From Cystobacter ferrugineus (lineage in GTDB: Bacteria; Myxococcota; Myxococcia; Myxococcales; Myxococcaceae), in NCBI RefSeq assembly GCF_001887355.1, contig NZ_MPIN01000004.1:62001-126000 (forward strand): a DNA stretch of 64,000 bases, given 5' to 3'. How positions within the stretch are numbered: the first letter of the stretch is position 1; every line of letters starts with the position of its first letter. The translations under genes were made by a program, and so were the position numbers. Below the pieces are notes generated by a model that was given only the letters and a program-made list of their open reading frames with translations, had not been told where the DNA came from and ran no database searches. Of this stretch, positions 30,397-44,234 are shown in pieces.

Positions 30397-30448
<52 letters not shown>

Positions 30449-30560
30449 GCCGGGGACCGTCCAGGGGTTATCAGCGGTTCACAACCCGTTGTAAATACTC
30501 GGGTTTCTGGAGTCGGACCGGTCCAGCCGTCCCATCCGGTATGCGAGGGCACCAAGGATT

Positions 30561-30580
30561 TTGCTGCTACCTTGCTGCTG
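30561..30580 (+). repeat. Inner-end repeat, left copy
   Basis: TTGCTGCTACCTTGCTGCTG is two TTGCTGCT units 11 bases apart. An 18/20 match occurs at 44068-44087 in the same orientation, just inside the right end. Both lie within about 115 bp of an att copy, a position expected of integrase arm-type sites. Confidence 0.5.
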
Positions 30581-30600
30581 CACCCTGCCCCGCTGCTGCC

Positions 30601-30759
30601 GGGTCCGGCGAGCCTGGCCGGCTGCTGAGCATCCGGGAAGTCGCGCAGCGGCTTGGGGTGGGCCGGGCCACCCTGTGCGAACGAGGTCCATTCCTCGGGT
30701 GGAGCCGGGTAAACCCCCGAGATTACTGGACGCTGGCGTTCATCCACGTTCACCAGTGA
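30601..30759 (+). pseudogene. Fragment of an excisionase-like HTH gene
   Basis: The frame encodes LLSIREVAQRLGVGRATLCERG, which reads like the start of a helix-turn-helix excisionase/MerR-type domain, then loses sense and stops at 30757-30759. The N-terminal part lacks a clear start. It sits just inside the left end and is most likely a decayed relic, distinct from the intact excisionase-like gene at 40760. Confidence 0.5.
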
Positions 30760-30832
30760 CCGGCCGATTACGTACAGATTACGTACCGCGCTCCCCCAGA
30801 TAGGGACCCAGAGCAACTCTCATATGTTCCGC

Positions 30833-31561
30833 CTACTTCACGACGACGCTTTTCAGCCCCGTTCGCACCTCGAAATCACGAGCCAGCCGCTCCATTTCCT
30901 TCGGATCCTCGCAGCCCAAACTGAATGAGAAGGTCGGTGCTGTCGGATGCTGGTAGAGCAGAAGACCGGCGTCGCCGCGCTCGTAAAGCGCGCAACGCTC
31001 GGCGGGAGGGATGCGCTTGAAGCCCTTCTCTTCGGCCAGAGCAGACACGAGGTCCGATCGGTATCGGACAGCGACACCGGGGTCCTCCGGCGACGAGAAA
31101 TCCCGACGATAAGGCAGCAACGGCAGGCGAAGCTCCTTGAAGGCCTCGTAGTAGAGAAACTCCTCTAGGCCCGCGTGTTTGGGATGACTGGCCACAGGAG
31201 GGAAGTCCTCATCCAGCGGCATGCGGACGAGCATGCAGTCGTCAACGCCATGGGGCATCGAACGATCGAGAAAGTAGTCCCAGCCGGCAAGCCCGTCGTC
31301 TCCCGCCACATAGATGTAGCGCCCGTGCCGCAGCCATCGCATGGCTTGGTAGGTGTAGATGCTCCCGGGGATGGAGAAGTCGGCCTCAGCAAGCTCAAGG
31401 TCACCCATGCTAGCGCCCATCGTTTGCAGGAATCGACGGTAGGCGCCCGGCAGGGGCCCTGCGTGTTCCTCCAGGAGCGCAATGTCTATCTCGTCCGCTG
31501 GCACGGCCTCCTTGGAGAAACCGGGGCGGTACTTTTCAATGAACTCGACGAGTGCCTTCAT
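30833..31561 (-). CDS. SMI1/KNR4-family immunity protein of the T6SS cargo operon
   Basis: A 242-residue SUKH-type immunity protein. Seen: LLEEHAGPLPGAYRRFLQTMGAS (SUKH helix and turn), DDGLAGWDYFLDRS, PKHAGLEEFLYYEAFKELRL, then a second C-terminal domain with FKRIPPAERCALYERGDAGLLLYQHPTAPTFSF, making it longer than single-domain relatives. It is the last gene of the cargo operon, 15 bp after the DUF4150 effector, and should neutralise that effector. The assignment to the effector is from gene order. Confidence 0.85.
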   Translation of the reverse strand: MKALVEFIEKYRPGFSKEAVPADEIDIALLEEHAGPLPGAYRRFLQTMGASMGDLELAEADFSIPGSIYTYQAMRWLRHGRYIYVAGDDGLAGWDYFLDRSMPHGVDDCMLVRMPLDEDFPPVASHPKHAGLEEFLYYEAFKELRLPLLPYRRDFSSPEDPGVAVRYRSDLVSALAEEKGFKRIPPAERCALYERGDAGLLLYQHPTAPTFSFSLGCEDPKEMERLARDFEVRTGLKSVVVK

Positions 31562-31576
31562 GGTCGCTCCTCTGAA

Positions 31577-32830
31577 TCAGCCGCACTTCGTATCGCAGTA
31601 CAGGGCGGCAAGCTTCTCCTGGCACTGCGAACAAGAAGGCACGTTCTCGCCGGTCTTGAAGCGCTGTTTGCGCTCCTCTACGGTGAGATTCTTCGTCACC
31701 GGGTCCTCTACCACAGCTTGGAAAGTTATCTGGGGCCCCTTGCTGGGCTTGAGTCCCTTCACCGCTGGAGAGAACCACCGCTCGATGAGTTGCTTGGGCT
31801 TGTGTCCCTGGGTCTTCTCCATGATCTGCCTGGCAGCACACTGCCACTCGTCTTGCGCGTCATCGGTTCCCCACGTGACAGGGGGGCTCGCGCACTCGAA
31901 ACCTGCCGATGACACAGCCCTCTCGAAGACCGGAGGTGCTCGACCTGAGCAGGCCGCGAGCTTCTTGCCTTTTTTGCCTTTGCAAACGCAAACGCAGAGC
32001 ATGACACCGAGCATGTAGCCCTTGAAAAAGGTGGCGTTGCCCCTGTCCCATCGAAGCACGGCGTTCGCCTTAAAGAACGACATGAGCGCATCGACCTTGG
32101 CTTCAAGAGCCGGGATTTCGCCCGTCAACGCTGCCAGCTCTTGTTTCTCTGCGGGGTTCAGCCCGCGTTTGTCGCGCTTGGTCTCCAGGTCTTTGCTCCT
32201 CCGCCGCTTCGAGGTCAGGTCCACGTGCGCTTGGTTCAAATCGCGAATCTTCCCCTTCTGGGCGTCGAACGATTTCCGCACTGCCTTGAACAGCGTACGG
32301 ATCATCTCTAGCGTCTCTACACCCGCTTCCAGCGGGTGCGTCTTCCCGCACCGCCCGCATGGCTTGTCGTCACCGTAGGTGACCGAGACCACCTTGGCCA
32401 TCTGGACGATCCCCGACATGGTAGCCGCGTTGGCGGGGCTTCCCGAGGGGCCGCAGTTGTTGAGCATGGGGTCGCTCAGTAGCTGGACGTTCTTGCCCTC
32501 GATCTGGACGTTCATCGAGCCAGGCCCCAGGAACTTCGTGGGACCGTGGGTGTTGCTGGAGACGAGGCCACCACCGGTACCCTTGCTGGCCATATCGCCC
32601 TGGCTGCCGAAGCTGGCGCCGGTAATGGCGACGGGCTGACCATCTATCGTCACTGTCTTGGAGTAGCCCTTTGGCGAATCGCCACTATTGCCGATATTGG
32701 GCAGGGGCGTGGGCACGAAGGGGGCCGGCGGGCCGGGCATCTTGCAGACGTTGGGGAGGGTGGCGGCGGCGATGCCAGAGCTGCCCTTGGTGACGGGGGT
32801 CTTGGGGGAATTGATGGCTACCGTGCCCAT
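31577..32830 (-). CDS. DUF4150 (PAAR-like) T6SS effector with Cys-rich C-terminal domain
   Basis: A 417-residue effector. Residues 1-125 are a DUF4150/PAAR-like domain (PLPNIGNSGDSPKGYSKTVTIDGQPVAITGASFGSQGDM), which caps the T6SS spike; CGRCGKTHPL (158-167) closes this part. Residues about 170-255 are a charged coiled-coil stalk. The C-terminal toxin has Cys279, Cys281, Cys283 and Cys294, WQCAARQIMEK (Cys331) and SCSQCQEKL (Cys400, Cys403). The CxxC plus upstream CA pattern recalls the zinc site of deaminase-fold toxins, but the expected Glu is Ala333, so activity is uncertain. The start overlaps the ketosynthase-like gene by 13 bp. Confidence 0.85.
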   Translation of the reverse strand: MGTVAINSPKTPVTKGSSGIAAATLPNVCKMPGPPAPFVPTPLPNIGNSGDSPKGYSKTVTIDGQPVAITGASFGSQGDMASKGTGGGLVSSNTHGPTKFLGPGSMNVQIEGKNVQLLSDPMLNNCGPSGSPANAATMSGIVQMAKVVSVTYGDDKPCGRCGKTHPLEAGVETLEMIRTLFKAVRKSFDAQKGKIRDLNQAHVDLTSKRRRSKDLETKRDKRGLNPAEKQELAALTGEIPALEAKVDALMSFFKANAVLRWDRGNATFFKGYMLGVMLCVCVCKGKKGKKLAACSGRAPPVFERAVSSAGFECASPPVTWGTDDAQDEWQCAARQIMEKTQGHKPKQLIERWFSPAVKGLKPSKGPQITFQAVVEDPVTKNLTVEERKQRFKTGENVPSCSQCQEKLAALYCDTKCG

Positions 32831-33909
32831 GGTCGGATTCCTCCTCCACGTTCGGGGTTTGGATCCTCAAGTAGAACAGCGGCTCGCAGGCCGGCGTCGG
32901 AGCTACCCCAGACCAGCGAGCGTGGACCGCGCGCGTACCTGCGCCGCCAGGCCTGTGCGCTCATCACCAGATTCAGCGCTCCGGTGGCGGCACCCACGTC
33001 GCCGCAACTCCGCACAGGCGTCTGGATGGCAGAGGCATCGCGGAACGCTGTCCCGAGCCGCAACGCCACGAAGCCCCACTCCTCCGAGCGGTAGCGGTCA
33101 CCGTTGATGTCGCAATGAATGTTCTCAACCGTCTCTCGCGAGCCGTCGAGCGACGCAAGCGCCTTGCTCACGGCGGAGGTCAGCCCCTCGCCCAGATTGA
33201 GCGCATCCGTGTTGATCAGCCGGGTCTCACGGGCGGTGGCGGAGGCGCGCACGGTGGCGGCGGGAGTCAGGCCTAGCCGGCGTGCGTCGGAGGCGGCCAC
33301 CAGCGCCACGAAGGCGGCGGCCTCGCCGGGAGCGAAACCGGTACGCGATCCTTCCTCAAGCCACTGGTTGTTCTCGCGTAGCCAGGCCAGCGTCTCGATG
33401 TCGAGGTAGCTGTCGACACCGCCCACTAGCACCAGGGGGCAACGCCCGGCGCGGCCGACCCGCGTGACGGCCTCCTGCAGCCCATCCAGCGCCGCAGCAT
33501 GGCCGGAGAGGCGCGGCTCGATTCGTAGGCGCAGGCTCCCTCCCCCAACAGCACCCAACGCGGCAACCACCTGCGGGACGTCGGACGCCTCCCATCCGGG
33601 GCGCTCCTCAGGGAGTCCCACGAGCACCGGCACCTCGGCGTTCAGGTACGCCGCCGTCGGAGCCAGCTTCCCAATGACCTCCGCCAGCGCCGCCGCTCCC
33701 AGCACGGCCATGCGCCCCGCTCCACCCCACTCGTTTGGGTCGAGCAACCCGTCCCGCCCGACGAACGAATCGGATTCGCCGCCCAGTTCCGGCACCTGAA
33801 CACGTCGCACCCGGCTGATGCCCGCACGTACGGCCGCTGCCACGCCCTCGGCCGTCGACCCCACCGGCGCGCGCGCTCCTGCGGCGACGATCTGCACATC
33901 CGCGCTCAT
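32818..33909 (-). CDS. Ketosynthase/thiolase-like protein of T6SS cargo operon
   Basis: A 363-residue protein with a 3-oxoacyl-ACP-synthase-like fold: LVLVGGVDSYLDIETLAWL, GFAPGEAAAFVALV, NIHCDINGDRYRSEEWGF and SCGDVGAATGALNLVM (the thiolase-fold C-terminal GxxGA loop). The canonical catalytic Cys motif is not evident in the nucleophile region, suggesting a non-enzymatic role. Homologues of this type recur between DUF2169 and DUF4150 genes in T6SS cargo clusters, where they are thought to assist effector handling. It follows DUF2169 with a 1-bp gap and overlaps the effector gene by 13 bp. Confidence 0.8.
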   Translation of the reverse strand: MSADVQIVAAGARAPVGSTAEGVAAAVRAGISRVRRVQVPELGGESDSFVGRDGLLDPNEWGGAGRMAVLGAAALAEVIGKLAPTAAYLNAEVPVLVGLPEERPGWEASDVPQVVAALGAVGGGSLRLRIEPRLSGHAAALDGLQEAVTRVGRAGRCPLVLVGGVDSYLDIETLAWLRENNQWLEEGSRTGFAPGEAAAFVALVAASDARRLGLTPAATVRASATARETRLINTDALNLGEGLTSAVSKALASLDGSRETVENIHCDINGDRYRSEEWGFVALRLGTAFRDASAIQTPVRSCGDVGAATGALNLVMSAQAWRRRYARGPRSLVWGSSDAGLRAAVLLEDPNPERGGGIRPWAR

Positions 33910-33910
33910 C

Positions 33911-34915
33911 TCAGTCGGTCCTCATGGTGATCACCGTGAAGTCGAGGTGGTCGGTTTCTCGCGGGCCGACCATCAGGCCAGTTTGGTAGACCATGCGCAG
34001 CTTTTTCAGCTCGGGCTCGATCACTACCGTACCCAGCGTGGCCTCGTGAAAGCGCCGGACGGCCCCGAAATGTGTGTCGAACCCGAAACGCAGGCGAGGC
34101 AGCACGAAGCTGAGCGAGCCTCGCGGCGTGAGCTGGTACAGGACGATCGTCTCGCCGCCCACGAGACGGCGCGACGGTCGCTGGTCGACGGGCGCGCATA
34201 GGGCGGAACGTTCGTCGTGATCGCGCGGTAGCAAGGGACGCCTGGTTTTCGACCAGGCGTCGTCGAAGGTGCCGCATAGCTCAAGCCGCGGCGACCAGTG
34301 GCTGGCGATGGGGCCAAACCCGGCTGGGCCCTGCTCGGCCGGCTTGCCCTGCAGGTACTCGATGCGGTGGGCGGGCTGGTCCACCAGGTGTGCGTCGCTG
34401 GTGGCCAAGCCGCGACCCACCGGGTTGCGGCAATCGCTGCGGTGCTTGCGCGGGTCCGGGTCTGTGGTGTCGGTGCCTCCCCAGGCCCACTCGTAGACGA
34501 TCGGCTGGCTCACGAAGGGCTTGGGGGCTGACGGTCTCACGCCCAGCACGCCGCGCTTGTAGACGCGCTCGCCGTAGACCACCAGCATCTTGTCAATGTC
34601 GTGGATGCGGACGGCGACCTCGACGCGGGGAGCGGGCCGGCCGCCGGGCGCGTGCGCGCAGGCATTGATGATGACGTCGGTGTGGGGCTTGGGGGCGACC
34701 AGATCGGCCTCGTAGCGCAGGCTGGAACGGCCGGGCTCACCCAGGTAGACGGGCTCGCGCAGCGGCGGCTCCTGCTCGGCCGAGGGGCGGAGCTGGCCCG
34801 TATCATCGAGGTCGAAGGTCGCCTTGACCACAACGACCCAAACGTGGTTGCCGTCCTTGTCGCGGACCCAGGTGCGTTCGACGGCGTGGGGAGTGCGGTT
34901 CGATAGGGCCCACAT
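33911..34915 (-). CDS. DUF2169 T6SS effector-adaptor protein
   Basis: A 334-residue cytoplasmic adaptor. Seen: MWALSNRTPHAVERTWVRDKDGNHVWVVVVKATFDL (the usual DUF2169 start), LVAPKPHTDVIINACAHAPGG, YGERVYKRGV, PIVYEWAWGGTD, NPVGRGL, GFGPIASHWSPRLELCGTFDDAW. Family: DUF2169 proteins load PAAR effectors onto VgrG spikes. ATG at 34915 is chosen as it gives the family start; an upstream extension to 35209 is unlike the family. First gene of the leftward cargo operon; no VgrG or Hcp gene is in the window. Confidence 0.92.
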   Translation of the reverse strand: MWALSNRTPHAVERTWVRDKDGNHVWVVVVKATFDLDDTGQLRPSAEQEPPLREPVYLGEPGRSSLRYEADLVAPKPHTDVIINACAHAPGGRPAPRVEVAVRIHDIDKMLVVYGERVYKRGVLGVRPSAPKPFVSQPIVYEWAWGGTDTTDPDPRKHRSDCRNPVGRGLATSDAHLVDQPAHRIEYLQGKPAEQGPAGFGPIASHWSPRLELCGTFDDAWSKTRRPLLPRDHDERSALCAPVDQRPSRRLVGGETIVLYQLTPRGSLSFVLPRLRFGFDTHFGAVRRFHEATLGTVVIEPELKKLRMVYQTGLMVGPRETDHLDFTVITMRTD

Positions 34916-35248
34916 AGCAGGTCTCTCCAATGGTAGGCAGTGGGCACCGCAAGAGTCTACAAGGGCCCGACTCGCCGCCAGCCACGCGGCGTCGTTCAGA
35001 ACGTGACGGTAACACTCGCGGCAGCGAGCTTGCCCTGGAAGTGGACAGATGGTGAGCGTACCGGCGGCGATGCCGGTCAATCTCCACCGGTTCCGTGCTG
35101 CCCGGCAACTCCGTGCGCGTGGCCCGATAAAACCCGCGTGCTCCTCGGCATAAGGCTCATGGCGGTCACCTCCGCTGACCCTCTGGCTGGTCGGCCAGTG
35201 CGTCTTCATTCAATTCCACACGCGCAATCCACACGAGGAGGAACCCAG
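34916..35248. other. Divergent intergenic region (333 bp)
   Basis: This stretch separates the leftward T6SS cargo operon (start 34915) from the rightward small-gene group (start 35249) and must hold both promoters. I see no convincing -10/-35 pair, operator or small gene in it. An open frame crosses it on the minus strand as an upstream extension of DUF2169 but shows no family resemblance. Confidence 0.5.
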
Positions 35249-35458
35249 ATGGAACACGTCAGCCTCTCCGCTGAGCTGGGGGAAATTCGTTATGCCATCG
35301 AGGGCGCCCACTGGATCGCGGACAGCGTCGCCATGGGCGCGGTACCCGACCCGGAGCGGACGCACAGTGCGCCCGTCATCATCAGCGCCATCCTGCTGCT
35401 GGTGGAAACCAGGCTGCATCAGTGCTCCGAGGCGAGGAGAACCCGGCGCACCTGTTGA
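35249..35458 (+). CDS. Small acidic hypothetical protein, possibly frameshifted into the next frame
   Basis: ATG 35249 follows a strong GAGGAGG ribosome-binding site (35234-35240). The 69-residue product is rich in helix formers (AELGEIRYAIEGAHWIADSVAMGAVPDPERTHSAPVIISAILLLVETRLHQ); the last residues (CSEARRTRRTC) look out of frame. From about 35422 the next frame reads VLRGEENPAHLLTPHNVTAGEY..DDVVLRPW, a sensible continuation, so the real protein is probably about 140 residues and a frameshift lies near 35421. Function unknown. Confidence 0.6.
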   Translation: MEHVSLSAELGEIRYAIEGAHWIADSVAMGAVPDPERTHSAPVIISAILLLVETRLHQCSEARRTRRTC

Positions 35459-35682
35459 CGCCGCACAACGTCACCGCTGGGGAGTACGCGGACAGGGATG
35501 ACGTGGTTCTGCGGCCCTGGGACTGGAGCGGAGCGTCGAGGCCGTCTCCATCCGAGAAGAAGGAAACCAAGCAACCCGGTCCAGTAGGGGGAACAGAGCT
35601 TCCTCGTTCGTTGGAGGAGAGCCCGCCCACCCAGCCCGGCACGCAGGGGGCGCAACCGCCCCCCACCGGGGAGCCGGACTGA
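35422..35682 (+). pseudogene. Out-of-frame continuation of the small gene at 35249
   Basis: The frame from GTG 35422 encodes an ordered 86-residue tail: VLRGEENPAHLLTPHNVTAGEYADRDDVVLRPW then a Pro/Gln-rich end. No ribosome-binding site precedes it. The two halves join in sense if one base is added or removed around 35421, so this is either a frameshift mutation, a sequence error, or programmed shifting. Confidence 0.5.
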
Positions 35683-35735
35683 CTGGCTGCGGCCTGTATC
35701 GTGCCTGGAGTTCCAGGGGAAGGGAGGTGAAGACG

Positions 35736-35849
35736 ATGCTGGGTACCGTGAAGAAGCTGGCCGCATCACCGCTCACCCTCCGGGTGGCAGCGGCCATCTT
35801 GCTCGGGCTGGCCGAGCACCTGCGGGAGGTGACGCGGCACGGGCGGTGA
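35736..35849 (+). CDS. 37-residue hydrophobic peptide
   Basis: ATG at 35736 follows GGGAGGTGA, one of the best ribosome-binding sites in the window. The product (MLGTVKKLAASPLTLRVAAA, then ILLGLAEHLREVTRHGR) has a short amphipathic or membrane helix. Its length and strong translation signal suggest a real small gene. Function unknown. Confidence 0.6.
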   Translation: MLGTVKKLAASPLTLRVAAAILLGLAEHLREVTRHGR

Positions 35850-36353
35850 AGATGCCCGGAGTTGAAGCACCGTCCCCGTCGCACCAACACCAGCGATGAT
35901 GCTCCCGGTCTTGGCCGGGCGGTGTGGCGGGGCCGGTTCGTCTCCACGGGCTCCGCTTCTGGTGGCACCAGCTCCGGTGCAGTTCCATCGCCGGAGGTCC
36001 CCGGTCACTTCTCCCGGTGGTCCTCCAGATTTTTAAGTATCAGGGGGGCATTACCCCCTCGTGAGCGAGGAGCTGGAGGGCGAACACTGGGTACGGCCAT
36101 CAGTAACCCCTGGGCGAAGCTCGCCAGGGACCGCGTACCGGGAGCAGCCCGCTGGAGTGTCCCCCCCGAAAAAATCTTGAGGACCCCCATCCCCAGGGAC
36201 TCGAAGGAGAGCGGGGGGCTTGCGGGTGGACCTGCGACAAGGGAACCCCTGTCCCCCCATCCCGGGGGCGCTCACCCAGATTCGCTAGCCCTACCGATTA
36301 GCGAGCCAGGGCGGAGACGGCCCGGGAGAGGCGTCAGAATGAACCCGAGGGCG
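35850..36353. other. 504-bp stretch without a recognisable gene
   Basis: Frames here have no family resemblance. Two weak dyads occur: AGGGGG...CCCCCT around 36042-36059 and TCGCTA/TAGCGA (36282-36287, 36299-36304), the latter 50 bp beyond the 3' end of the leftward gene ending at 36354 and a possible terminator. An AT-richer patch (36030-36040) interrupts high-GC sequence. Nothing else is seen. Confidence 0.4.
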
Positions 36354-37220
36354 TCACTTCACGAGCCGCAGGCGCACGCGCAGCTCCTTGGCCTCGGCCG
36401 GGTTCTGGGCCTTCACGGCGGCCACCTGGACGCGGAGCTGGTCGAGGAGCCCGAGCTGCCGTTGCATTGCGGTCTCCAGCAGCTTGCGGTGGCGCTCCAG
36501 CTTCCGCAGGTCCACGTCGTCCAGCAGCAGCACCTCGGCGGCCAGCCGCTCGCGCACCGGCGCCAGCGCGCCCTCGTCCTCGGCCAGCTTCGCGGTGAGG
36601 GCCCCCTTCAGCGCCTTGGCCGCGTTTCCCAGGGCCCGGTAGGCGTCCGGCAGCATGCGTCCGTCCTTGGAGGTCTCCCGGGCATGAGCGAGCGAGAATG
36701 CGAGGGGCTGACTCACCGCCTTCGGCAACTCCGGCACCTCGTAGACGATCTTCATGGTGCCCTCCACGGCGGCCAGCAGGGCGTCGGTCTGCACCTCATC
36801 CTGCGGCGCCGGGCAGGCGTCCGCGATCTCCACGAAGGCGCTCACGGCCTGGAGTGCGCGGCGGGTGAGGACGAACCGCTCGAACTCGGGCGTCTTCTCC
36901 ACGGCATCATCCAGGCTGGCGAGAGTCCGTCCGCTCTCCAACTTGCTCAGCCGCTCCAGCTTCCAGGCCGTATCCCCGAGCTGCGCCACGATGACGGCCT
37001 CGGGCAGGGTAGCTGGCGCGAAGGTGACGAAGTACCCATCGAGATGGCGCTCGTACTCGTTGGCATCTTCCCCGGGCAGTAGTAGCTGCTTGGCGCTCAA
37101 CCCGTGCCGGAGGGCATTGAGTGAGGATGCAACCTTCCCTTCAGGCGTCTTCGGACCCTTCGAGTGCGCCCCATTGATCGCGGCCTGCGCAGCCTGCACG
37201 GCGGTTCTGACGGTCTTCAT
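36354..37220 (-). CDS. Helical hypothetical protein with NALRHGLSA motif
   Basis: A 288-residue cytoplasmic protein. Seen: KGPKTPEGKVASSLNALRHGLSAKQLLLPGEDANEYERHLDGYF near the N-terminus, a motif widespread in uncharacterised bacterial proteins of mobile regions, then long amphipathic helices (LGDTAWKLERLSKLESGR; ERHRKLLETAMQRQLGLLDQLRVQVAAVKAQ) suggesting a coiled coil. The ATG at 37220 is the first clear start. It diverges from the 37282 gene (61-bp gap). Function unknown; possibly a mobile-element-associated DNA-binding protein. Confidence 0.75.
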   Translation of the reverse strand: MKTVRTAVQAAQAAINGAHSKGPKTPEGKVASSLNALRHGLSAKQLLLPGEDANEYERHLDGYFVTFAPATLPEAVIVAQLGDTAWKLERLSKLESGRTLASLDDAVEKTPEFERFVLTRRALQAVSAFVEIADACPAPQDEVQTDALLAAVEGTMKIVYEVPELPKAVSQPLAFSLAHARETSKDGRMLPDAYRALGNAAKALKGALTAKLAEDEGALAPVRERLAAEVLLLDDVDLRKLERHRKLLETAMQRQLGLLDQLRVQVAAVKAQNPAEAKELRVRLRLVK

Positions 37221-37281
37221 GCTCGAATTGTGAAGGAGCCTCTACACCTGTGGGAACTGCTTCTTGGCGGGGGGACCAGGC

Positions 37282-38028
37282 GTGACGAGCTTCTCGGCCA
37301 TGAACCAGCCACGCTTCATCGCGCATCTCGCCTCGAATGCCTCGGTTTTCGCCTACCTTGAAGTAGAGCAGGAACGCATCCGCCCGCATGTTGACGCGCT
37401 TGCAGCGAGCATGGAGATGGGACTCAAGATCTCCAATGCGTCCGAGCCCCTGCGGAACCTGCTGGGATGGCTCGGCAAGAAGAACGACGTGCTCAGCCAG
37501 CGCAAGCAGTCGCTCTTCCAGAACGCCAGGAGCAGTTGGGTGGGGCGATACATCCAGGTCACGCGCGGCTTGCTGCCGCCCGTGCTCGTCGAGAGCCTCC
37601 AGCCTCTGCGCCAACTGGAACGAGTGGCCACCTTCCTTCTCGCTCTCCAGCGACGTATCGGACCCCTGCTCGAAGAAGTGAAACAGAAGCCAGCTCTCCG
37701 TGTCCTGCTCGAAGGAGCGGGTGCGGAGAAGAGGATGATGGCCGCCTTCGCGGACTTCACGGCGGAGATACTCGGCATCGAGTTGGCGCACAGGGAGATC
37801 GCCGCGCTCGCCATCCTCATCGGCTATGAGGACCCCACCTCGGACAAAGATGAAACCGACAAGCGGGTGTGGAAGTGGACCAACGCGCGCCAAAACTCCA
37901 AGGAACTCCTGGCGGCGTTGAGACAACTCACAGGCCAGAGTCCCCCACCCACGGCGCCAACCGACCCGTCACCAGAGGAGCCGCCCGTTCCTCCACCGCA
38001 ATCCCCTTTCGGGGACTTGCAGGCATGA
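37282..38028 (+). CDS. Unknown helical protein with Pro-rich tail, inside the element
   Basis: A 248-residue protein (GTG 37282, after GGGGGA; ATG 37300 is an alternative). It is predominantly helical (LEVEQERIRPHVDALAASMEMGLKI, ARSSWVGRYIQVTRGLLPPVLVESLQPLRQLERVATFLLALQRRI, LGIELAHREIAALAILIGYEDP) and ends in a Pro/Thr/Glu tail. I do not recognise a family. It is divergent from 36354-37220 and followed by the long leader of polB, so it could be a replication accessory, but that is only position. Confidence 0.7.
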   Translation: MTSFSAMNQPRFIAHLASNASVFAYLEVEQERIRPHVDALAASMEMGLKISNASEPLRNLLGWLGKKNDVLSQRKQSLFQNARSSWVGRYIQVTRGLLPPVLVESLQPLRQLERVATFLLALQRRIGPLLEEVKQKPALRVLLEGAGAEKRMMAAFADFTAEILGIELAHREIAALAILIGYEDPTSDKDETDKRVWKWTNARQNSKELLAALRQLTGQSPPPTAPTDPSPEEPPVPPPQSPFGDLQA

Positions 38029-38481
38029 GATCCAGGGCGTGGAGATGATGGGGGCAGTGAGCCCTCCCATCTCCAGGGGGTAGAGATGGTGCTGGGTAAC
38101 GAGCCATTCCGTCTCTAGTAGAGGCCAATCGCCCCACAACCCCACGAGACCTCTAGGATTTTTCTTCGACCGAAGCATCTCGACATTGCCACTCAGAGCC
38201 GGACGCCCAGGACAGGCGCCCTGCGCACGAGGCGGCAAGATGCGACGGTCGAAAGCCACCAGGAACTCCAAGAACATCACCCTCATCCAAGGGATCACGA
38301 TGAGGGGGCAGGCGTGTTGTCCGCCCCCTCATCACGGTTCCGGACACTCTGTTGAGCCCCTCGACGTCGTAATTTCGAGGGCTTGCAAGCTCCGAGGGGC
38401 TGGACGGTTCCAGTCCGCCATCTGGCGAAACGCGCCAATCTCCTGCCGCGCCAAGTCCCTGCAATTGCTCGGGGGTGGCGC
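38029..38481 (+). promoter_or_regulatory. Structured 453-bp leader upstream of polB
   Basis: No gene is seen in this gap. GAGATG appears at 38042-38047 with CATCTC at 38068-38073 and a further GAGATG nearby, a possible iteron-like group. Towards polB there are a strong hairpin at 38299-38333 (described separately), a competing stem CCTCATC/GATGAGG (38281-38287 with 38299-38305), and AGCCCCTCG/CGAGGGGCT (38355-38363 with 38393-38401). Candidate roles are an attenuator, replication origin or structured RNA. Confidence 0.5.
38299..38333. terminator. 11-bp hairpin 149 bp upstream of polB
   Basis: GATGAGGGGGC (38299-38309) and GCCCCCTCATC (38323-38333) pair perfectly. The first arm could instead pair with CCTCATC at 38281-38287, giving two mutually exclusive structures as in attenuators. 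No T-run follows. Confidence 0.5.
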
Positions 38482-40767
38482 ATGAACGAGAAGGATTTGG
38501 AGACGCACCTGGGGCTGCTCCTGTCCCGGACGCTCTCTCCCCTCCGTCGTCGGCCCCGAGCGTATCCGCACACCGTGCTGGTGGGCGTGAGCGTGAAGTG
38601 GGACGAGGAGCATCGCGTCCCGCTGCTGTTGCAGCTCGTCACCCTCGCGGACGAGCACGTCCACGCCCAAGCCTACGAGCTGCCCGAGGGACAGCTCATG
38701 GGCGAGCAGCTCATCGACTGCATCCGGGAACTGCTCCGGCGGGCCGATGCCATGCCGCCCGCCCGGCGCGGAATCCGGCAGGTGCATGTGGTGGCACACG
38801 AGGCCAGCAGTCTCCTCGCCCTCTTTCCTTCCGCCGTGACCGAGGCGCGGGTGGAGCAGGTGGGAAAGGCCCACCACGCGCGACTGGAGCGCGTGAAGCG
38901 CGAGGAGGGCACCTGGGACGTGCGGCTGGTGGAGCTCGCGGGCTATTTCCCGAAGACTCCCTTGGAGGAAATCGCTCGAACCGTGGGCCGTCCCCGCCAG
39001 GAGGCAGATGGGCCGCACCTGACCGAGCTGAAGCGGACGGCTCTAGCGTGGCTGGTGGCCCATGCCGCCCGGGACGCGGAGGTGGCCCTGCGTGCCATGC
39101 GGGACTTCCGCCAGGGGGTGCTCGCCGAGTGGAACATCGACGTGCTCGGCAACCGCACCTTACCGGCCGTGGCGTCCGCCATCTTCCGCCTGCACTTCGT
39201 CCGGAATGGCCCCGCCCCGGTGGTGAAGCGCGAGGTGGTGCGCAAGGTGAAGAAGGGCACGGGCTACCGGGATGAGCCGCGTGTCGAGCTGGTCTTCAAC
39301 GGCGACCCGAACGTGCGCCGCATGGCCTGCCGCGCCTACTGGGGTGCGCAGTCGGAGGCGTTCCGGCGCGGCTTCCACGTCGGCGCCTTCGCCGAGTACG
39401 ACGCAGTGTCCCTCTATCCCTACGCGGCGATGCTCCAGCCGCTCCCCCACGCTGGGACACGGTGGGTCCGGCTGGAATCCCTCGCCCAGGTCGAGGAGCA
39501 CGAGGGCTTCGGCACCTTCACGTTCGTCTTCCCGAGGGGCACGCGCTACCCCTGCCTGCCAGTGCATCGCAACGGCGTGCGTCGACTCGTCTTTCCTCTT
39601 CAAGGAACCTCCTCCTGCACGTTGGCCGAGGTGCGCCTGGCGCTACGACGGGGGGCGAAGGTGAAGGTGGTGGAAGCCTACGGCTTCAAGCCCGGCCCTC
39701 GTGAGCGCGACCACGACGTGAGCCGCTACATGCGGCACTTCCTCGAGAAGAAGGCCGCCGCCAAGAGGGGCACCCTGGAGTACGCCACGGCCAAGCTCTT
39801 CGCCAACGCTCTGCTGGGCAAGCTGGCCGAGAAGATGCACGGTTCGGGCCTGCTGGACGTCGAGCGCGAGGCCCAGCTCCACGGCTTCGGCCCGGGACTG
39901 GGAGCGGCCATCCACGGCTCGCCGTTGTTGCGCGCCTCGCTTAAGGGGCCTCCGGATGTAGGCAGTGCTTTCGCCCCGGAGTGGGCCACGCTGGTGCTGG
40001 GCCAAGCTCGCGCCCTCATGGCCGACATCACCGCGCGTGGGGCCCTTCTCGTCTCCACCGACGCCATCATCTGCCCCGAGGAGTTGGACCTGCGCTGTGA
40101 AGGGCTCGATGCGCTGGAGAGCGTTGGCAGCGGCATGCGCCTGGAGCATCGGGCTGATGCCGTCTTCATCGCCCGTGCTCGCTTGTACGCGCTGCTGCGG
40201 AGGGTGGAGGACGTGGGCCCCGGTGAGACGGTGCTGGGAAGGGATGACACCTGGGCGGTGGTGCGTGTCGCCCGTCAGGGGACGAGCGAGTCGGAGGCGG
40301 ACTTCGCCCAGACGCTTCTGGCCTGCCTGCGCGAGGGGCGCGACGTGGCCCCGACGCGCATCAGGAAACGGCGGCTGACGATGGAGGCGGCTGTGCGTGA
40401 GGGCAAGCCCATCCACTCCCTGGTACAGGAGGAGGTGCGCACGGGCTTCTCGTGGGACAACAAGCGACGGTTGCTCGACCGCGACAGCAAACCATTCACG
40501 CAGAGCACGGACACCGCCCCGTACCGCTCACTCTCGCGGCTGGAAGCAGGTGAGCGTCAGCGACAGATTCGAGAGGGAGGCGCGCGCCCTCGGAAGTCAC
40601 GGGTGCCGGCCCACAAGATGGAGAAGGCCCTCGCCTTGTTGAGTGGCGGCAGAAGTGTTCGAGAGGTGGCCAATGAGCTGAAACTGGCCCGCTCCACGGT
40701 CGGCGACATCAAGAAGCGCGCTGGCCTGGGCACAGTGGAGTCTGAAGAAGGAGGCGCCGATGCGTAG
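38482..40767 (+). CDS. Family-B DNA polymerase with C-terminal HTH
   Basis: A 761-residue DNA polymerase of family B, organellar/viral (DNA_pol_B_2) kind. Seen: motif A EYDAVSLYPY (Asp307), motif B KLFANALLG (Lys438, Asn442, Gly446; canonical Kx3NSxYG), motif C LLVSTDAII (Asp527; first Asp of DTD is Ser525). Residues 20-210 look like the DEDDy 3'-5' exonuclease fold with ARDAEVALRAM (third motif) but the acidic residues of the first two motifs are not evident (VGVSVKW, AHEASSLLAL), so proofreading is probably lost. Residues about 712-746 form a resolvase-like helix-turn-helix (ALLSGGRSVREVANELKLARSTVGDIKKRAGL). ATG 38482 follows GGGGGTGG. It should replicate or repair the element; next gene overlaps by 8 bp. 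Confidence 0.82.
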   Translation: MNEKDLETHLGLLLSRTLSPLRRRPRAYPHTVLVGVSVKWDEEHRVPLLLQLVTLADEHVHAQAYELPEGQLMGEQLIDCIRELLRRADAMPPARRGIRQVHVVAHEASSLLALFPSAVTEARVEQVGKAHHARLERVKREEGTWDVRLVELAGYFPKTPLEEIARTVGRPRQEADGPHLTELKRTALAWLVAHAARDAEVALRAMRDFRQGVLAEWNIDVLGNRTLPAVASAIFRLHFVRNGPAPVVKREVVRKVKKGTGYRDEPRVELVFNGDPNVRRMACRAYWGAQSEAFRRGFHVGAFAEYDAVSLYPYAAMLQPLPHAGTRWVRLESLAQVEEHEGFGTFTFVFPRGTRYPCLPVHRNGVRRLVFPLQGTSSCTLAEVRLALRRGAKVKVVEAYGFKPGPRERDHDVSRYMRHFLEKKAAAKRGTLEYATAKLFANALLGKLAEKMHGSGLLDVEREAQLHGFGPGLGAAIHGSPLLRASLKGPPDVGSAFAPEWATLVLGQARALMADITARGALLVSTDAIICPEELDLRCEGLDALESVGSGMRLEHRADAVFIARARLYALLRRVEDVGPGETVLGRDDTWAVVRVARQGTSESEADFAQTLLACLREGRDVAPTRIRKRRLTMEAAVREGKPIHSLVQEEVRTGFSWDNKRRLLDRDSKPFTQSTDTAPYRSLSRLEAGERQRQIREGGARPRKSRVPAHKMEKALALLSGGRSVREVANELKLARSTVGDIKKRAGLGTVESEEGGADA

Positions 40768-40975
40768 GCCCACCATGGACACGGACAACTTGGAGCAGGA
40801 GGAGGGCCTCTGGGACGCGAATGACGTGGCTCGCTTCCTCAAAGCCTCGCGCTCGTGGGTGTACCAGCGGGCTCAGGCGGGTCAGCTTCCGTGCGTGAAG
40901 ATCGGCGGGCTGCTGCGCTTCGAGCCGGCAGCGCTCCGCGCCTTCATCAGGGGCCAGGGCACAAAAATCAGGTAG
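40760..40975 (+). CDS. Excisionase-like helix-turn-helix protein
   Basis: A 71-residue HTH_17-type protein: LWDANDVARFLKASRSWVYQRAQAGQLPCVKIGGLLRFEPAALRAFI is the typical DNA-binding excisionase/AlpA-like domain (D-A-x-x-V-A-x-x-L-x-x-S-x-x-x-V-Y, then IGG-LRF). The start codon lies inside the polB stop region (40760-40767), so it is translationally coupled to the polymerase; ATG 40775 is an alternative. It should act with the integrase 48 bp downstream to control excision. Confidence 0.88.
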   Translation: MRRPTMDTDNLEQEEGLWDANDVARFLKASRSWVYQRAQAGQLPCVKIGGLLRFEPAALRAFIRGQGTKIR

Positions 40976-41022
40976 GTCCAGGTCATAAGACCTCTGAGGT
41001 TCATCATCACGAGGAGGTCCGA

Positions 41023-42207
41023 ATGGGTTCCATCTACCGCAAGAACGACAAGTGGTACGTCCGATTCAAGGACGGACACGGCCGGTGGCGCGACACCGCC
41101 ACCCAGGCCACCACGAAGACGGAGGCGAAGTCCCTCCTCCATGACTTGGAGGTTCAATCCGACCGGCAACGGCGCGGCCTGGAGCCCATGCCCGAGCACC
41201 GGAAGCAAGTCACCTTCGGGGAGGCCATGGACCGCTGGAAGACCGAAGTGGGTAGTCGGCTCCGCTCCACCACCATCATCGGCTTCGGAGAGAAGCACCT
41301 GCGCGACGAGCTAGGCGCCCTCCCGCTCAAGGACATCACGCCTTCTCGTCTGGAAGTGCTGATCAACGCGAAGGCGAGCGAGCTGGCGCCCAAGTCGCGC
41401 AACCACCTGCGCACCCTTCTCCACCGCATCTTCGAGCTGGCGATCCGGCGCGGTCTCTTCAGCGGCCTCAACCCCGCCAAGACCGTCCCGCGCATCAAAC
41501 AGCCGAAGAAGCTCCCGCAGTACCTCAAGGCCGAGGAGGTCCCGCTGATGCTCACGACCCTGGAGCACCGCTGGCGGCCCCTGTTCGCCACAGCCGTCTA
41601 CACCGGGATGCGTAAGGGCGAGTTGCTGGCGCTGCGCAAGTCGGACGTGGACCTCGAGACAGGCACCATCCGGGTGGGCCGCTCCCACGGGAGCGACACC
41701 ACGAAGGGAAACCGGGAGGACCTGCTGCCCATCGCGGTGGGCCTGGCGCCCTACCTGCGCGAGGCCATGGCTACGTCCCCCTCGGAGCTTCTATTCCCTC
41801 GGGAGGATGGTACTCAGCACCGGCCAGACGTGGCCCTGCACAAGGTGCTGCGCCGAGCCCTGGGGCGCGCGGGACTGGTGGAGGGCTACAACCACGTCTG
41901 TCGGCGCAAGGGCTGCGGTTACAAGGCGAGGAAGCGTCACGGGGTGCCCGAGCCCTGCCCCCGCTGCGGCATGAAGCTGTGGCCACGGGCGCTCCCCCGC
42001 CCGCTGCGCTTCCACGACCTGCGGCACACCACGGCCACCCTGCTGCTCAAGGCAGGCGTCCCGCTGGCCACCGTGCAGCGAATCCTCCGCCACTCAGACC
42101 CGGCCATCACCACGGAGGTCTACGGCCACCTCGACGTGGAGGACATGCGCAAGGGCCTCGATCAACTCGACTTCACGGCGCCCGAGCCGACCACCCCGGC
42201 CGAGTAG
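41023..42207 (+). CDS. Tyrosine recombinase/integrase with a four-Cys insert
   Basis: A 394-residue phage-type integrase. Seen: N-terminal AP2-like arm-binding domain (GSIYRKNDKWYVRFKDGHGRWR), SAM-like core-binding domain (residues about 65-155), and catalytic residues Arg197 (TGMRKGE), Lys228, His331/Arg334 (HDLRH), His357 (RHSD) and Tyr367 (TEVYGHL). Between the Arg and HxxR motifs sits CRRKGCGY..GVPEPCPRCGMKLW with Cys293, Cys298, Cys312 and Cys315, a zinc-ribbon-like insert uncommon in this family. ATG 41023 follows AGGAGG. It most likely recombines the 51-bp tRNA-Pro att repeats. Confidence 0.93.
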   Translation: MGSIYRKNDKWYVRFKDGHGRWRDTATQATTKTEAKSLLHDLEVQSDRQRRGLEPMPEHRKQVTFGEAMDRWKTEVGSRLRSTTIIGFGEKHLRDELGALPLKDITPSRLEVLINAKASELAPKSRNHLRTLLHRIFELAIRRGLFSGLNPAKTVPRIKQPKKLPQYLKAEEVPLMLTTLEHRWRPLFATAVYTGMRKGELLALRKSDVDLETGTIRVGRSHGSDTTKGNREDLLPIAVGLAPYLREAMATSPSELLFPREDGTQHRPDVALHKVLRRALGRAGLVEGYNHVCRRKGCGYKARKRHGVPEPCPRCGMKLWPRALPRPLRFHDLRHTTATLLLKAGVPLATVQRILRHSDPAITTEVYGHLDVEDMRKGLDQLDFTAPEPTTPAE

Positions 42208-42347
42208 TTCCCACTGGTCGCCAGAGGCGAGCGAGGTTGGGCACGGCCTGCTCCGGTATGATCCAGCCCGCTCCCTCAACAGGCTTCTCATTCACCCCAT
42301 ACATCACACCCCATGCCACATGACGATGCAGCCGGATCTTCAGTCGG

Positions 42348-42365
42348 TGATTTTTCCATGAATCA
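42348..42365. promoter_or_regulatory. AT-rich dyad upstream of the RHH-EVE gene
   Basis: TGATT (42348-42352) and AATCA (42361-42365) flank TTTCCATG in an AT-rich patch (42345-42415) that stands out from the high-GC background. It probably includes the promoter of the next gene and a site for its RHH domain. Confidence 0.35.
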
Positions 42366-42432
42366 TATATTGCACCAAAAATCGCATCGTGCGCATATGG
42401 CGGTGGCACTAACACCGAGAGGGAGTGAGCCG

Positions 42433-43083
42433 ATGAGCAAACTGGTCGAACTGATCCGGGAGTCGAAGAGCGCGAAGAAGGAGGAGATGGTCCCCACCAC
42501 GCTGCGCCTTCCCGTCAAACTGAACTCGTACGTGGAGGGGCTGGCCGACCAGCTGTCCCTGTCCAAGCAGGAGATGCTGCTGCGCTTGGTGGAGGAGGGA
42601 GTGAACGCCGCCGAGAACGAACTGAAGCTGGATGACCGCGAGGAGGAGAGGAAGAAGCAGGCGGCCGAGCGGGAAATGCAGGGGAAGTGCAGCTTCCACG
42701 TGCTGAACACCAACAAGCGGCACAGCGTCGAGGACCACGAATGGATGATCCGGGAAGGGGTGGCTGCCGCTTTCTATGACCCCTGGAAGTACAACATCGA
42801 CCGGCTCAAGAAGGGCGATGTCGTCTTCCTGTACGAGAACGGGGTGGGGATCGTTGCGTACGGAACCGCAACGGGAGAGGTGCTGGTCGCGGATCACGAC
42901 GACGACCGGGACGAGACCCACTACCAGAAGCTTCAGGACTTCAAGCGGCTGTCGTCGAAGCCGCTGCCTGCTGCTGAAATCAAGAAGACCCTCAGCCGGA
43001 ACGTCGTGTTCCTGAGGACCATGTCCGCGATGCCCGACGGCCAAAAGGTACTGGACAAACTTGCCACCTACGAGCGGACCTGA
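42433..43083 (+). CDS. Ribbon-helix-helix/EVE-like fusion protein
   Basis: A 216-residue protein. The N-terminal half (residues about 20-62) is RHH-like: VPTTLRLPVKLNSYVEGLADQLSLSKQEMLLRLVEEGV. After a charged linker (DDREEERKKQAAERE) the C-terminal ~125 residues look like an EVE/PUA-like domain: CSFHVLNTNKR...DHEWMIREGVAAAFYDPWKYNIDRLKKGDVVFLYENGVGIVAYGTATGEV. EVE domains read modified nucleotides and occur in antiphage restriction modules. ATG 42433 follows GAGGGAGTGA. The fusion may be a regulator reading modified nucleic acid, or a defence component; this is inference. Confidence 0.7.
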   Translation: MSKLVELIRESKSAKKEEMVPTTLRLPVKLNSYVEGLADQLSLSKQEMLLRLVEEGVNAAENELKLDDREEERKKQAAEREMQGKCSFHVLNTNKRHSVEDHEWMIREGVAAAFYDPWKYNIDRLKKGDVVFLYENGVGIVAYGTATGEVLVADHDDDRDETHYQKLQDFKRLSSKPLPAAEIKKTLSRNVVFLRTMSAMPDGQKVLDKLATYERT

Positions 43084-43220
43084 AGAGACCGGCTGCTCGG
43101 AGAAGCCGGGCAAGGTGTCAGAGAATTCCAGCCGCTTTTAGCCCAGCTTAACCCCCATCCCGAGTTCCCAAGCTGGCCCCCAGGCACGATTACGCCAGCG
43201 CGCAGAAGTGAGAGAGGGTC

Positions 43221-44051
43221 ATGTCAATACGGAGAGCAACATCCAGGCGGCGACTCCGCTGCCACGGTCTTTTCTACGCTCGTGGATTGGCGAGTGGCGA
43301 GAGACAACTGTGCCGCAGCCAGCTTGTCCTTGAGTTCTGCGACACCAAACCGAACAACCGGACACTGCTGGTCTACCTCATGAACCCCGGCGCCGGTGTC
43401 CCGGTCGCCACCGCGCACATCCCCATTGTTACCCACGCGTGTCAGATCCCCCAGATGGCCGTCTGGCTCCCGACGATCCCCGATGCCACGCAAGCGCAGA
43501 TCGTCCTGCTGATGGAAGCGCTCGACTGCGGGCGCGCCATCGTCGTGAACCTCACCGATGTCTGCGAGCCGGACAGCAGCGCGCTCGGCCCGCGCGTGAC
43601 GGCTCTCGCGAACAACACGCCTCGCTGGGATTCCCTCTTCCACGCTCCGCGTCACGCCGAACTGAACAACCTACTGACGGCCGGCCCCTACGTCGCCATG
43701 ATCGGCGGCTGGGGCGCCCTGGGGTCGAAGCAGGCGTGCCTACGGGACGCGGCCAGTGAGGTCTGCGCCCGTTTCCCTGGCATCATCGGGGCACCAGCCA
43801 GGTCGAGCTACCGGAACTTGGGATTCCGCCATCCCCGACCGACCGCTGCTGGCGGGCCGAAGCGGCGATATTACGGGAGTTGGCGAAAAGACGTGGCATC
43901 GCTACTGAACCTCTCTCAGGAGAGTGTGGCTGCGCTCAGCGCCGAGCACACGATCGACCTGCTCGTGGATAAGAACCGCATCTGGACCATCGACGGGAAC
44001 AACAGCCTCAACATCGACTTGTCCTGCGCGAGCCGACCCGAAGGGACTTAG
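43221..44051 (+). CDS. DUF1643-like protein
   Basis: A 276-residue protein. LLVYLMNPGAG, IVVNLTDVCEPDSSALG, NNLLTAGPYVAMIGGWGALG and YRNLGFRHPRPT match in order the MLNPS, NLF, P...N, WG..G and P.HP elements of DUF1643, found in mobile and defence regions. ATG 43221 follows GAGAGGG. No enzymatic motif is evident beyond this. It is the last gene before the right att. Confidence 0.55.
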   Translation: MSIRRATSRRRLRCHGLFYARGLASGERQLCRSQLVLEFCDTKPNNRTLLVYLMNPGAGVPVATAHIPIVTHACQIPQMAVWLPTIPDATQAQIVLLMEALDCGRAIVVNLTDVCEPDSSALGPRVTALANNTPRWDSLFHAPRHAELNNLLTAGPYVAMIGGWGALGSKQACLRDAASEVCARFPGIIGAPARSSYRNLGFRHPRPTAAGGPKRRYYGSWRKDVASLLNLSQESVAALSAEHTIDLLVDKNRIWTIDGNNSLNIDLSCASRPEGT

Positions 44052-44067
44052 AGTCGGCCCCCTCCGC

Positions 44068-44087
44068 TTGCTGCTAGTTTGCTGCTG
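44068..44087 (+). repeat. Inner-end repeat, right copy
   Basis: TTGCTGCTAGTTTGCTGCTG matches the left copy at 30561-30580 at 18 of 20 positions, with the same two TTGCTGCT units 11 bases apart. It ends 69 bp inside the right att repeat. Confidence 0.5.
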
Positions 44088-44109
44088 GCCTCTTGGCCCC
44101 GGAAAGACG

Positions 44110-44153
44110 AAGGGCGCGGAGTCCGAGGATTTCTCCAAGGATTCCGCGCCCTT
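44110..44153 (-). terminator. Element-borne terminator after tRNA-Pro
   Basis: AAGGGCGCGGA (44110-44120) and TCCGCGCCCTT (44143-44153) pair over 11 bp. The stem ends 4 bp from the tRNA 3' end on the minus strand. It replaces the ancestral terminator left at 30350-30396. Confidence 0.65.
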
Positions 44154-44156
44154 CTG

Positions 44157-44234
<78 letters not shown>

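What the first reader, a model, noticed from the sequence alone, without database searches (positions are those of the whole stretch)
42433..43083. Ribbon-helix-helix fused to an EVE-like domain
EVE/PUA-like domains read modified bases; here the domain is fused to an RHH DNA-binding domain, a combination I do not know as a described family, within a mobile element and beside a DUF1643-like gene. It may be a sensor of modified phage DNA or a regulator that responds to modified nucleic acids.
Basis: partly seen in the sequence, partly recalled or inferred. Interest (0 to 1): 0.58.

Follow-up and report, generated by a model that had tools for sequence, protein, structure and literature searches.

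The report
Self-regulated DNA-binding EVE-like reader gene
A small gene carried by plasmids and other mobile DNA joins a DNA-binding repressor domain to a domain of the kind that recognises chemically modified bases, and seems to control its own expression, so it may be a compact sensor of foreign or modified nucleic acid whose job is still untested.

Summary
The 216-aa protein at 42433-43083 is a ribbon-helix-helix (RHH) domain joined to an EVE/YTH-type PUA-like domain, by AlphaFold2 models and structure comparison; it stays below Pfam's cut-offs for both. It is cargo of a 13.8-kb integrative element (51-bp direct repeats at tRNA-Pro). Relatives give tblastn matches in 147 of 72,556 plasmid records, including 2.7-2.9-kb plasmids with two to four annotated genes. 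The models scanned in Pfam, NCBIfam, PHROGs and PADLOC do not describe the fusion, and my paper searches found none.

Two new results. (1) Just upstream lies an array of G[ACG][AT][TC]C-like boxes every 11-12 bp. In leave-one-out tests it is the best array of the whole locus in 8 of 8 relatives, the window included (AT-matched controls: at most 3 of 8 in 9,748 runs). Other clades mostly carry different boxes. This points to autoregulation by the RHH part. (2) A homologous EVE-like domain sits on NucS-like nucleases that match PADLOC's defence candidate PDC-S11.

Best reading: a self-contained, autorepressed reader of modified or foreign nucleic acid. Ligand and phenotype are untested. The neighbouring 'DUF1643-like' gene is not a fixed partner.

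The parts
30398..30448 (.). left direct repeat (attachment site) of the integrative element
   Evidence: 51-bp exact copy of 44157-44207; 96% over 57 bases in whole-genome search
44157..44207 (.). right direct repeat, within the 3' part of tRNA-Pro
   Evidence: tRNA-Pro 44158-44234 (-) by ARAGORN
41023..42207 (+). tyrosine integrase of the element (open frame from 40855; likely start at 41023 by eye)
   Evidence: Pfam Phage_integrase E 7.8e-25 for the frame 40855-42204
40760..40975 (+). excisionase-like HTH_17 protein
   Evidence: Pfam E 3.8e-10
42349..42388 (.). predicted operator: four boxes GATTT 42349, GAATC 42360, GCACC 42372, GCATC 42384, spaced 11/12/12 bp
   Evidence: held-out box model: 1 of 1000 and 1-2 of 500 shuffles reach it; best array of the 64 kb, both strands
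42433..43083 (+). RHH-EVE-like fusion gene, 216 aa (the finding)
42487..42681 (+). RHH domain with long second helix (residues 19-83)
   Evidence: AF2 models; structure rows; PHROGs Arc-like
42682..43080 (+). EVE/YTH-type PUA-like domain (residues 84-216); invariant T93, M105, G139, I140, L167, T196 in 19 rows
   Evidence: no Pfam family at E <= 1; 63% homologue in a genome without RHH-EVE

Best explanation
The gene encodes a self-contained, autorepressed nucleic-acid reader carried as cargo by mobile DNA. Shown by computation: an RHH domain fused to an EVE/YTH-type PUA-like domain; a phased multi-box array immediately upstream that goes with the gene on unrelated replicons and differs between clades; purifying selection; a homologous EVE-like domain fused to NucS-like nucleases. 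Inferred: RHH dimers bind the box array side by side and repress their own gene. The EVE-like pocket flips and holds a modified or otherwise foreign base. When such DNA (or RNA) enters the cell it draws the protein off its operator, expression rises, and the protein coats the marked nucleic acid, which blocks or delays a competing phage or plasmid. No nuclease domain is present, so any effect would be by binding, not cutting.
For: Fold of both halves. Operator array: the top-scoring array of the 64 kb lies at this gene with models trained on relatives. In leave-one-out tests 8 of 8 loci have their best array at this gene, against at most 3 of 8 in 9,748 AT-matched control runs. L033, outside the training set, is reached by 2-3 of 500 shuffles. 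Clades B and C have other boxes, TACAA/TTGTA and TAATAC/GTATTA, in 7 of 11 loci. Homologous domain on NucS-like nucleases: L057 (family profile E 1.6e-38 over the domain, 31% identity; PADLOC PDC-S11 E 2e-25) and L034 (19% identity; PDC-S11 E 1e-24). Cargo on replicons of different kinds: 2883-bp plasmids whose 3123-bp relative carries Rop, 2.7-kb MobV plasmids, a 4.6-kb Rep plasmid, IncF and IncU plasmids, and chromosomal or island copies in Polaromonas and Pectobacterium. dN/dS 0.06-0.19 in 8 of the 10 pairs tried; 2 saturated.
Against: No ligand or phage evidence exists. Canonical EVE pocket residues could not be mapped with confidence, and the Pfam EVE score is below cut-off. No defence neighbour is constant: four loci have Abi, restriction or DNA-methyltransferase genes in the flank shown, others show none. 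The box was first spotted by eye in the training sequences, the window included. On the true loci the six seeds tried gave 8, 8, 8, 7, 3 and 3 of 8. L004, L005 and L023 are close relatives. In 3 of 8 loci the best array reads on the minus strand. Of 14 other loci scored with the clade A model, one non-clade-A member, L011, also scored 12.7 (7-16 of 500 shuffles). No sigma-70-like promoter was found by consensus scan in the three upstream regions tested. In clades B and C, L020, L052 and L056 show no excess of boxes and L018 is marginal. For L010, L022, L052 and L055 I took an internal ATG as start; the annotated or longest frames start further upstream.
Confidence: 0.4

Rival explanations
1. 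A plasmid/element housekeeping regulator (copy number, mobilisation or partition) of CopG type, whose EVE-like domain senses a small ligand or an RNA.
For: CopG and ORF56, plasmid copy-control proteins, and ParG appear among the structure rows; the gene is one of 2-3 annotated genes on 2.7-kb plasmids.
Against: It sits on replicons of different types: rep_cluster_2335 plasmids with Rop in the 3123-bp relative, Rep plasmids, IncF/IncU, and chromosomal contigs. With the clade A model the best array is at the gene itself in 8 of 8 loci; next-best arrays are lower, so no target replication gene is seen.
Confidence: 0.2
2. An anti-restriction or masking protein: it binds the marks that EVE-type or NucS-EVE nucleases read and shields its own plasmid.
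For: A homologous EVE-like domain is on NucS-like nucleases; many carriers are plasmids (147 records).
Against: No co-occurrence test with such nucleases was made; chromosomal solo copies do not obviously need it.
Confidence: 0.15
3. A one-protein toxin-antitoxin-like unit: the RHH half represses and restrains, the EVE-like half is harmful or targets RNA when freed.
For: Antitoxin RHH domains (KacA, MazE-mt9) are the best structure rows for the N-terminal half; EVE proteins with GNAT/PIN partners are predicted TA parts (PMC7641849 passages).
Against: EVE domains are not known to me as toxins; no toxin gene recurs beside it; the invariant residues T93, M105, G139, I140, L167, T196 do not look like a catalytic set (judgement).
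Confidence: 0.1
4. An ordinary autoregulated transcription factor of unknown small-molecule signal, with no role in defence.
For: RHH plus operator array is sufficient for this; MarR-EVE and YafY-EVE operons are predicted ligand-responsive regulators (PMC7641849 passages).
Against: No other clade A array of equal score was seen in the loci scanned; a lone regulator of itself alone would have no output.
Confidence: 0.15

Closest known systems
EVE domain proteins (Pfam PF01878; UPF0310 such as MJECL36; PH1033)
   Same: same PUA-like fold over residues 82-216 (Z 12.1 and 11.8); MJECL36 is also the best PDB sequence match of the domain profile, though not significant (E 0.2). That UPF0310 and PH1033 are EVE is recalled
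   Different: below Pfam cut-off; fused to RHH; LNTN...AAAF...W-type conserved stretch of its own
VcaM4I, EVE-HNH modification-dependent endonuclease (PMC7897488, passages seen)
   Same: EVE-type reader domain (Z 11.3)
   Different: HNH nuclease instead of an RHH domain; its pocket residues P24, W82, Y130 could not be matched residue by residue here
PADLOC candidate PDC-S11 / NucS-like nuclease-EVE proteins (L057, L034)
   Same: homologous EVE-like C-terminal domain, 31% and 19% identity; both match PDC-S11 models (E 2e-25 and 1e-24)
   Different: NucS-like nuclease part at the N terminus (Pfam NucS_C, below cut-off) instead of RHH; no significant clade A box array upstream
RHH autorepressors (Arc, CopG, omega, KacA and other antitoxins)
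   Same: RHH fold and multi-box operator at the own gene
   Different: those carry no EVE-like domain, and antitoxins come with a toxin gene (recalled)

Membership tests
EVE (PF01878) / PUA-like EVE-YTH superfamily | PUA-like fold matching solved EVE domains | tested here: met
   2p5d Z 12.1 (2.8 A over 119), 1wmm Z 11.8, 6yex Z 11.3; YTH 10.9 and ASCH 10.3 close behind, so EVE and YTH are not sharply separated
EVE (PF01878) / PUA-like EVE-YTH superfamily | Pfam EVE curated score (23 bits) | tested here: not met
   14.2 bits; 5 of 18 relatives match at E <= 1, best 0.0034. So called EVE-like here, not a Pfam EVE member
EVE (PF01878) / PUA-like EVE-YTH superfamily | aromatic base-binding pocket | tested here: inconclusive
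   aromatic at the W118 column in 18 of 19 rows (L034 has a gap), T93 invariant; no residue-by-residue structural mapping was available
EVE (PF01878) / PUA-like EVE-YTH superfamily | binding of modified base | not testable with these tools
   needs binding assay
Ribbon-helix-helix repressors (Arc/CopG) | RHH fold | tested here: met
   KacA complex 5.9, MazE-mt9 5.8, SO_1444-SO_1445 complex 5.5, MatP 5.0, CopG 4.2; modest Z, Foldseek E 1.3 at best, homeodomain rows from Z 4.0 down; supported by PHROGs Arc-like E 4e-4 and CopG-family sequence hits
Ribbon-helix-helix repressors (Arc/CopG) | Pfam RHH family score for the window protein | tested here: not met
   no Pfam RHH family listed for P0001 at E <= 1; of 18 relatives 2 weakly match RHH_5 and 1 RHH_1
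Ribbon-helix-helix repressors (Arc/CopG) | operator boxes at own promoter region | tested here: met
   8 of 8 clade A loci in leave-one-out; binding itself not testable here
PDC-S11 phage-defence candidate | NucS-like nuclease domain | tested here: not met
   none found in P0001 by Pfam; PADLOC gives 0 families for it
Type II toxin-antitoxin | adjacent toxin gene conserved among relatives | tested here: not met
   among 184 neighbour ORFs (80 aa or more) of 24 loci none recurs in more than 3 loci; shorter ORFs were not compared

The most novel reading that the evidence does not exclude
A one-gene defence switch: the repressor that holds its own promoter is itself the sensor, and modified invader DNA turns it on by titrating it off the operator array through its EVE-like pocket, after which it coats the marked DNA.
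Probability: 0.18. Interest if true: 0.8.

Novelty: new variant of a known kind. Interest (0 to 1): 0.56.

Why it matters
The readers of modified DNA in bacteria best known to me are joined to nucleases. A widespread family in which such a reader is joined to its own repressor, on plasmids as small as 2.7 kb, would be a minimal sensor of modified or foreign nucleic acid. It comes with an operator that can be tested directly, and a reporter can be built from one short promoter.

Tried and rejected
The neighbouring P0002 gene as a functional partner: rejected, since its 63% homologue lies in a genome without an RHH-EVE match, there was no plasmid match at E <= 0.01, and no Pfam match at E <= 1. 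The uracil-DNA-glycosylase-like gene next to L053 as a conserved partner: it did not recur among the neighbour ORFs of 24 loci. Recurring neighbours there were few: one ORF in 3 loci (L010, L017, L022), and five further groups in 2 loci each, one of them the 114-aa gene that is labelled abortive infection protein in L017. A tree of the EVE-like domain (19 rows) did not settle whether RHH or nuclease fusions came first: 10 of 16 inner branches were open and three rows had long branches. Sequence search of the PDB with the domain profile gave nothing significant (best E 0.2). PolB against PDB sequences gave nothing useful. Promoter consensus scans of three upstream regions found no sigma-70-like site. 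Phage records: no match. Three of five viral-contig scans found no relative; the other two found L023 and L024. Structure re-alignment covered only the best-ranked Foldseek chains (999 and 152), so absent families are not excluded.

Full report
What was checked. Its start agrees with relatives in Polaromonas (58%), a Zetaproteobacteria MAG (55%) and Pectobacterium (54%) (alignment). The same frame is open back to an ATG at 42313; if that were the true start, the array described below would be coding. The gene is the only match there, and 1 of 195 genomes searched in the phylum has a match, namely this one. Horizontal acquisition is inferred from this.

Domains. An AlphaFold2 model from six sequences (mean pLDDT 78, pTM 0.58) shows a short strand, two helices with a long second helix (RHH), then a beta-barrel domain. 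Foldseek ranks VcaM4I first (E 4e-5). Over residues 82-216 the best re-aligned rows are MJECL36 2p5d Z 12.1, PH1033 1wmm Z 11.8 and VcaM4I 6yex Z 11.3; YTH domains (10.9) and ASCH (10.3) follow. The first 84 residues were folded alone (mean pLDDT 80). Foldseek gave no significant match (best E 1.3, AmrZ). Re-alignment of 152 chains put RHH proteins in most of the best rows (KacA complex 5.9, MazE-mt9 5.8, SO_1444-SO_1445 complex 5.5, MatP 5.0, CopG 4.2, Arc 4.0), with homeodomain rows from Z 4.0 down. A profile search of PDB sequences returns CopG-family chains and the antitoxin EndoAI first (E 0.047-0.13), and PHROGs gives Arc-like repressor at E 4e-4. Pfam cut-offs are not reached for either half, so 'EVE-like' is the correct label.

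The element. tRNA-Pro lies at 44158-44234 (-). A 51-bp exact direct repeat joins 44157-44207 with 30398-30448 (also seen by whole-genome search). That makes an integrative element of 13,810 bp with an integrase, an excisionase-like gene and a family-B DNA polymerase (DNA_pol_B_2 E 8e-14), and a secretion-type cargo (Tox-PAAR-like E 9e-17, DUF2169 E 1e-80). The RHH-EVE gene and P0002 lie between the integrase and the attachment site.

Distribution. tblastn with the window protein finds 147 of 72,556 plasmid records, all below 60% identity, 120 with at least 80% coverage. Not every one need be the full fusion: a Lysinibacillus record found with the Polaromonas protein (L019) holds the EVE-like domain alone. 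There is no match in 50,697 phage records. Among 5,426 complete E. coli genomes, three family members were searched at high identity: 5, 7 and 2 genomes have them, all on plasmids. In drawn genome sets, full-length fusions occur in 2 of 369 (class of the Pectobacterium genome, that genome included, and again 2 of 369 with the Polaromonas genome as centre, a largely identical draw), 5 of 247 (its order, likewise) and 2 of 399 (order of the Polaromonas genome, likewise). Most other hits cover only the RHH part. The carriers differ in kind: 2883-bp plasmids, whose 3123-bp relative with the same replicon type has Rop, so probably ColE1-like; 2.7-kb plasmids on which MobV, an HTH gene and this gene are all that is annotated (one search lists two genes; the PLSDB gene table is incomplete); IncF and IncU conjugative plasmids. 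By my reading of the translations the Pectobacterium copy lies in an integrase- and conjugation-like region and the Polaromonas copy between metabolic genes. Among 184 neighbour ORFs of 24 RHH-EVE loci none recurs in more than 3 loci. NCBIfam (window protein only) and PADLOC have no model of the fusion; PADLOC's PDC-S11 matches 10 of 18 relatives weakly (best E 8e-4), in the two examined over residues 49-147 and 124-180.

The operator. Upstream sequences of relatives carry repeated boxes. For clade A (window, L002, L003, L004, L005, L023, L008 and L033, held longer as L063) the boxes are G[ACG][AT][TC]C-like and spaced 11-12 bp. The pattern was noticed by eye in all of these except L033, then tested. 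A box model trained on the other six loci scores the window's upstream at 18.6; 1 of 1000 dinucleotide shuffles reaches that (the other six, each left out in turn: 0, 0, 0, 0, 1 and 10 of 1000). L033, not used in the training, scores 11.5 there (2-3 of 500 shuffles). Spacing 11/12, the spacing used in training, is the best of eleven for the window and ties with 10/11 for L033. Of 14 loci of other kinds scored with this model, 13 score 7 or less and L011 (Thiothrix, also RHH-EVE) scores 12.7 (7-16 of 500 shuffles). Over whole loci and both strands, leave-one-out models put the single best array within 110 bases upstream of this gene in 8 of 8 loci, including the whole 64-kb window (minus strand in L002, L023 and L008). 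With AT-matched random stretches in place of the true upstream regions, 9,748 runs gave at most 3 of 8 (4,874 with the standard seed: at most 2). On the true data the standard seed gave 8 of 8 and five other seeds 8, 8, 7, 3 and 3. L004, L005 and L023 are close relatives, so the eight loci are not fully independent. Four clade B loci (L010, L017, L021, L022) carry TACAA/TTGTA boxes, and L053-L055 carry TAATAC/GTATTA boxes, in numbers that none of 500 shuffles reached; L018 is marginal, and L020, L052 and L056 show no excess (words chosen after looking; internal ATG used for L010, L022, L052, L055). The RHH strand differs in parallel: T-x-R in clade A, S-x-R in these B and C loci. Together this supports binding of the gene's own RHH domain to its own promoter region. 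It does not show repression.

Relatives of the reader domain. In genome G1176 a 346-residue protein (L057:868-1908) has a NucS-like part (Pfam NucS_C E 0.002, below cut-off) followed by a homologous EVE-like domain (family profile E 1.6e-38; 31% identity to the window's) and matches PADLOC PDC-S11 at E 2e-25. L034 carries a 347-residue protein of the same plan (19% identity in the domain) that matches PDC-S11 at E 1e-24. L019 has the domain alone (138 aa). Thus this reader domain is used with a DNA-binding domain, with a nuclease-like part, and alone. The invariant residues across all 19 rows are T93, M105, G139, I140, L167 and T196. In VcaM4I a threonine (T11) and the residues P24, W82 and Y130 hold the flipped base (PMC7897488, passages). 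Whether T93 and W118 correspond to any of these could not be established.

Literature. The survey of EVE domains (PMC7641849) was searched by term in its main text: no RHH, ribbon, CopG, plasmid, NucS or DUF91. Passages seen describe EVE with MarR/YafY regulators, nucleases and GNAT/PIN proteins. Term combinations returned no paper. Searches (2 papers; 12 papers; 62 papers, 20 listed) were seen as listings; only PMC7641849 and PMC7897488 were opened, in passages. Papers outside the held library were not searched.

Mechanism. Shown: two-domain anatomy, box array at the own promoter region, selection on the protein, mobile cargo. Inferred: autorepression, a base-binding pocket, a response to modified or foreign nucleic acid. 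I rate the whole chain at 0.4, because the ligand, the direction of regulation and any phage effect are untested. The autoregulation step alone I would rate near 0.85.

Verdict. The defence reading is plausible and now better motivated, but unproven. Novelty: a new variant of a known kind (modified-base readers of the PUA superfamily), with a new partner domain and a self-contained regulatory design.

Noticed in passing
window 30398-44207: 13.8-kb integrative element at tRNA-Pro with 51-bp direct repeats, carrying a Tox-PAAR-like protein (31577-32830), DUF2169 (33911-35209), a weakly ketoacyl-synthase-like protein (32818-33909) and a weakly SUKH-like protein (30833-31561): probably a secretion-linked effector/immunity cargo.
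   Followed up: partly
window 38383-40767: Family-B DNA polymerase (DNA_pol_B_2) with a C-terminal HTH-like stretch next to excisionase and integrase genes in an integrative element; recalls pipolin-type elements (recalled, not tested).
   Followed up: no
L053 2139-2909: Gene directly after RHH-EVE with a weak uracil-DNA-glycosylase superfamily match (Pfam E 8e-4, below cut-off), followed by a weak tubulin/FtsZ-like GTPase match (2906-3469).
   Followed up: partly
L057 868-1908; L034 1435-2478 (-): NucS-like nuclease part joined to the EVE-like domain; both match PADLOC PDC-S11; candidate modification-dependent nucleases.
   Followed up: partly
L014, L015, L025: 2.7-kb enterobacterial plasmids with two or three annotated genes, on which the RHH-EVE gene is about a fifth of the replicon.
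   Followed up: partly
L017 2664-4730; L022 3585-5687: Two RHH-EVE loci share an upstream block of three small genes, one named abortive infection protein in L017.
   Followed up: no
window 43221-44051; L059: P0002 family: 63% homologue in one other genome of the same family, read with one TGA inside by the search tool; no Pfam match at E <= 1 for P0002; function unknown.
   Followed up: partly
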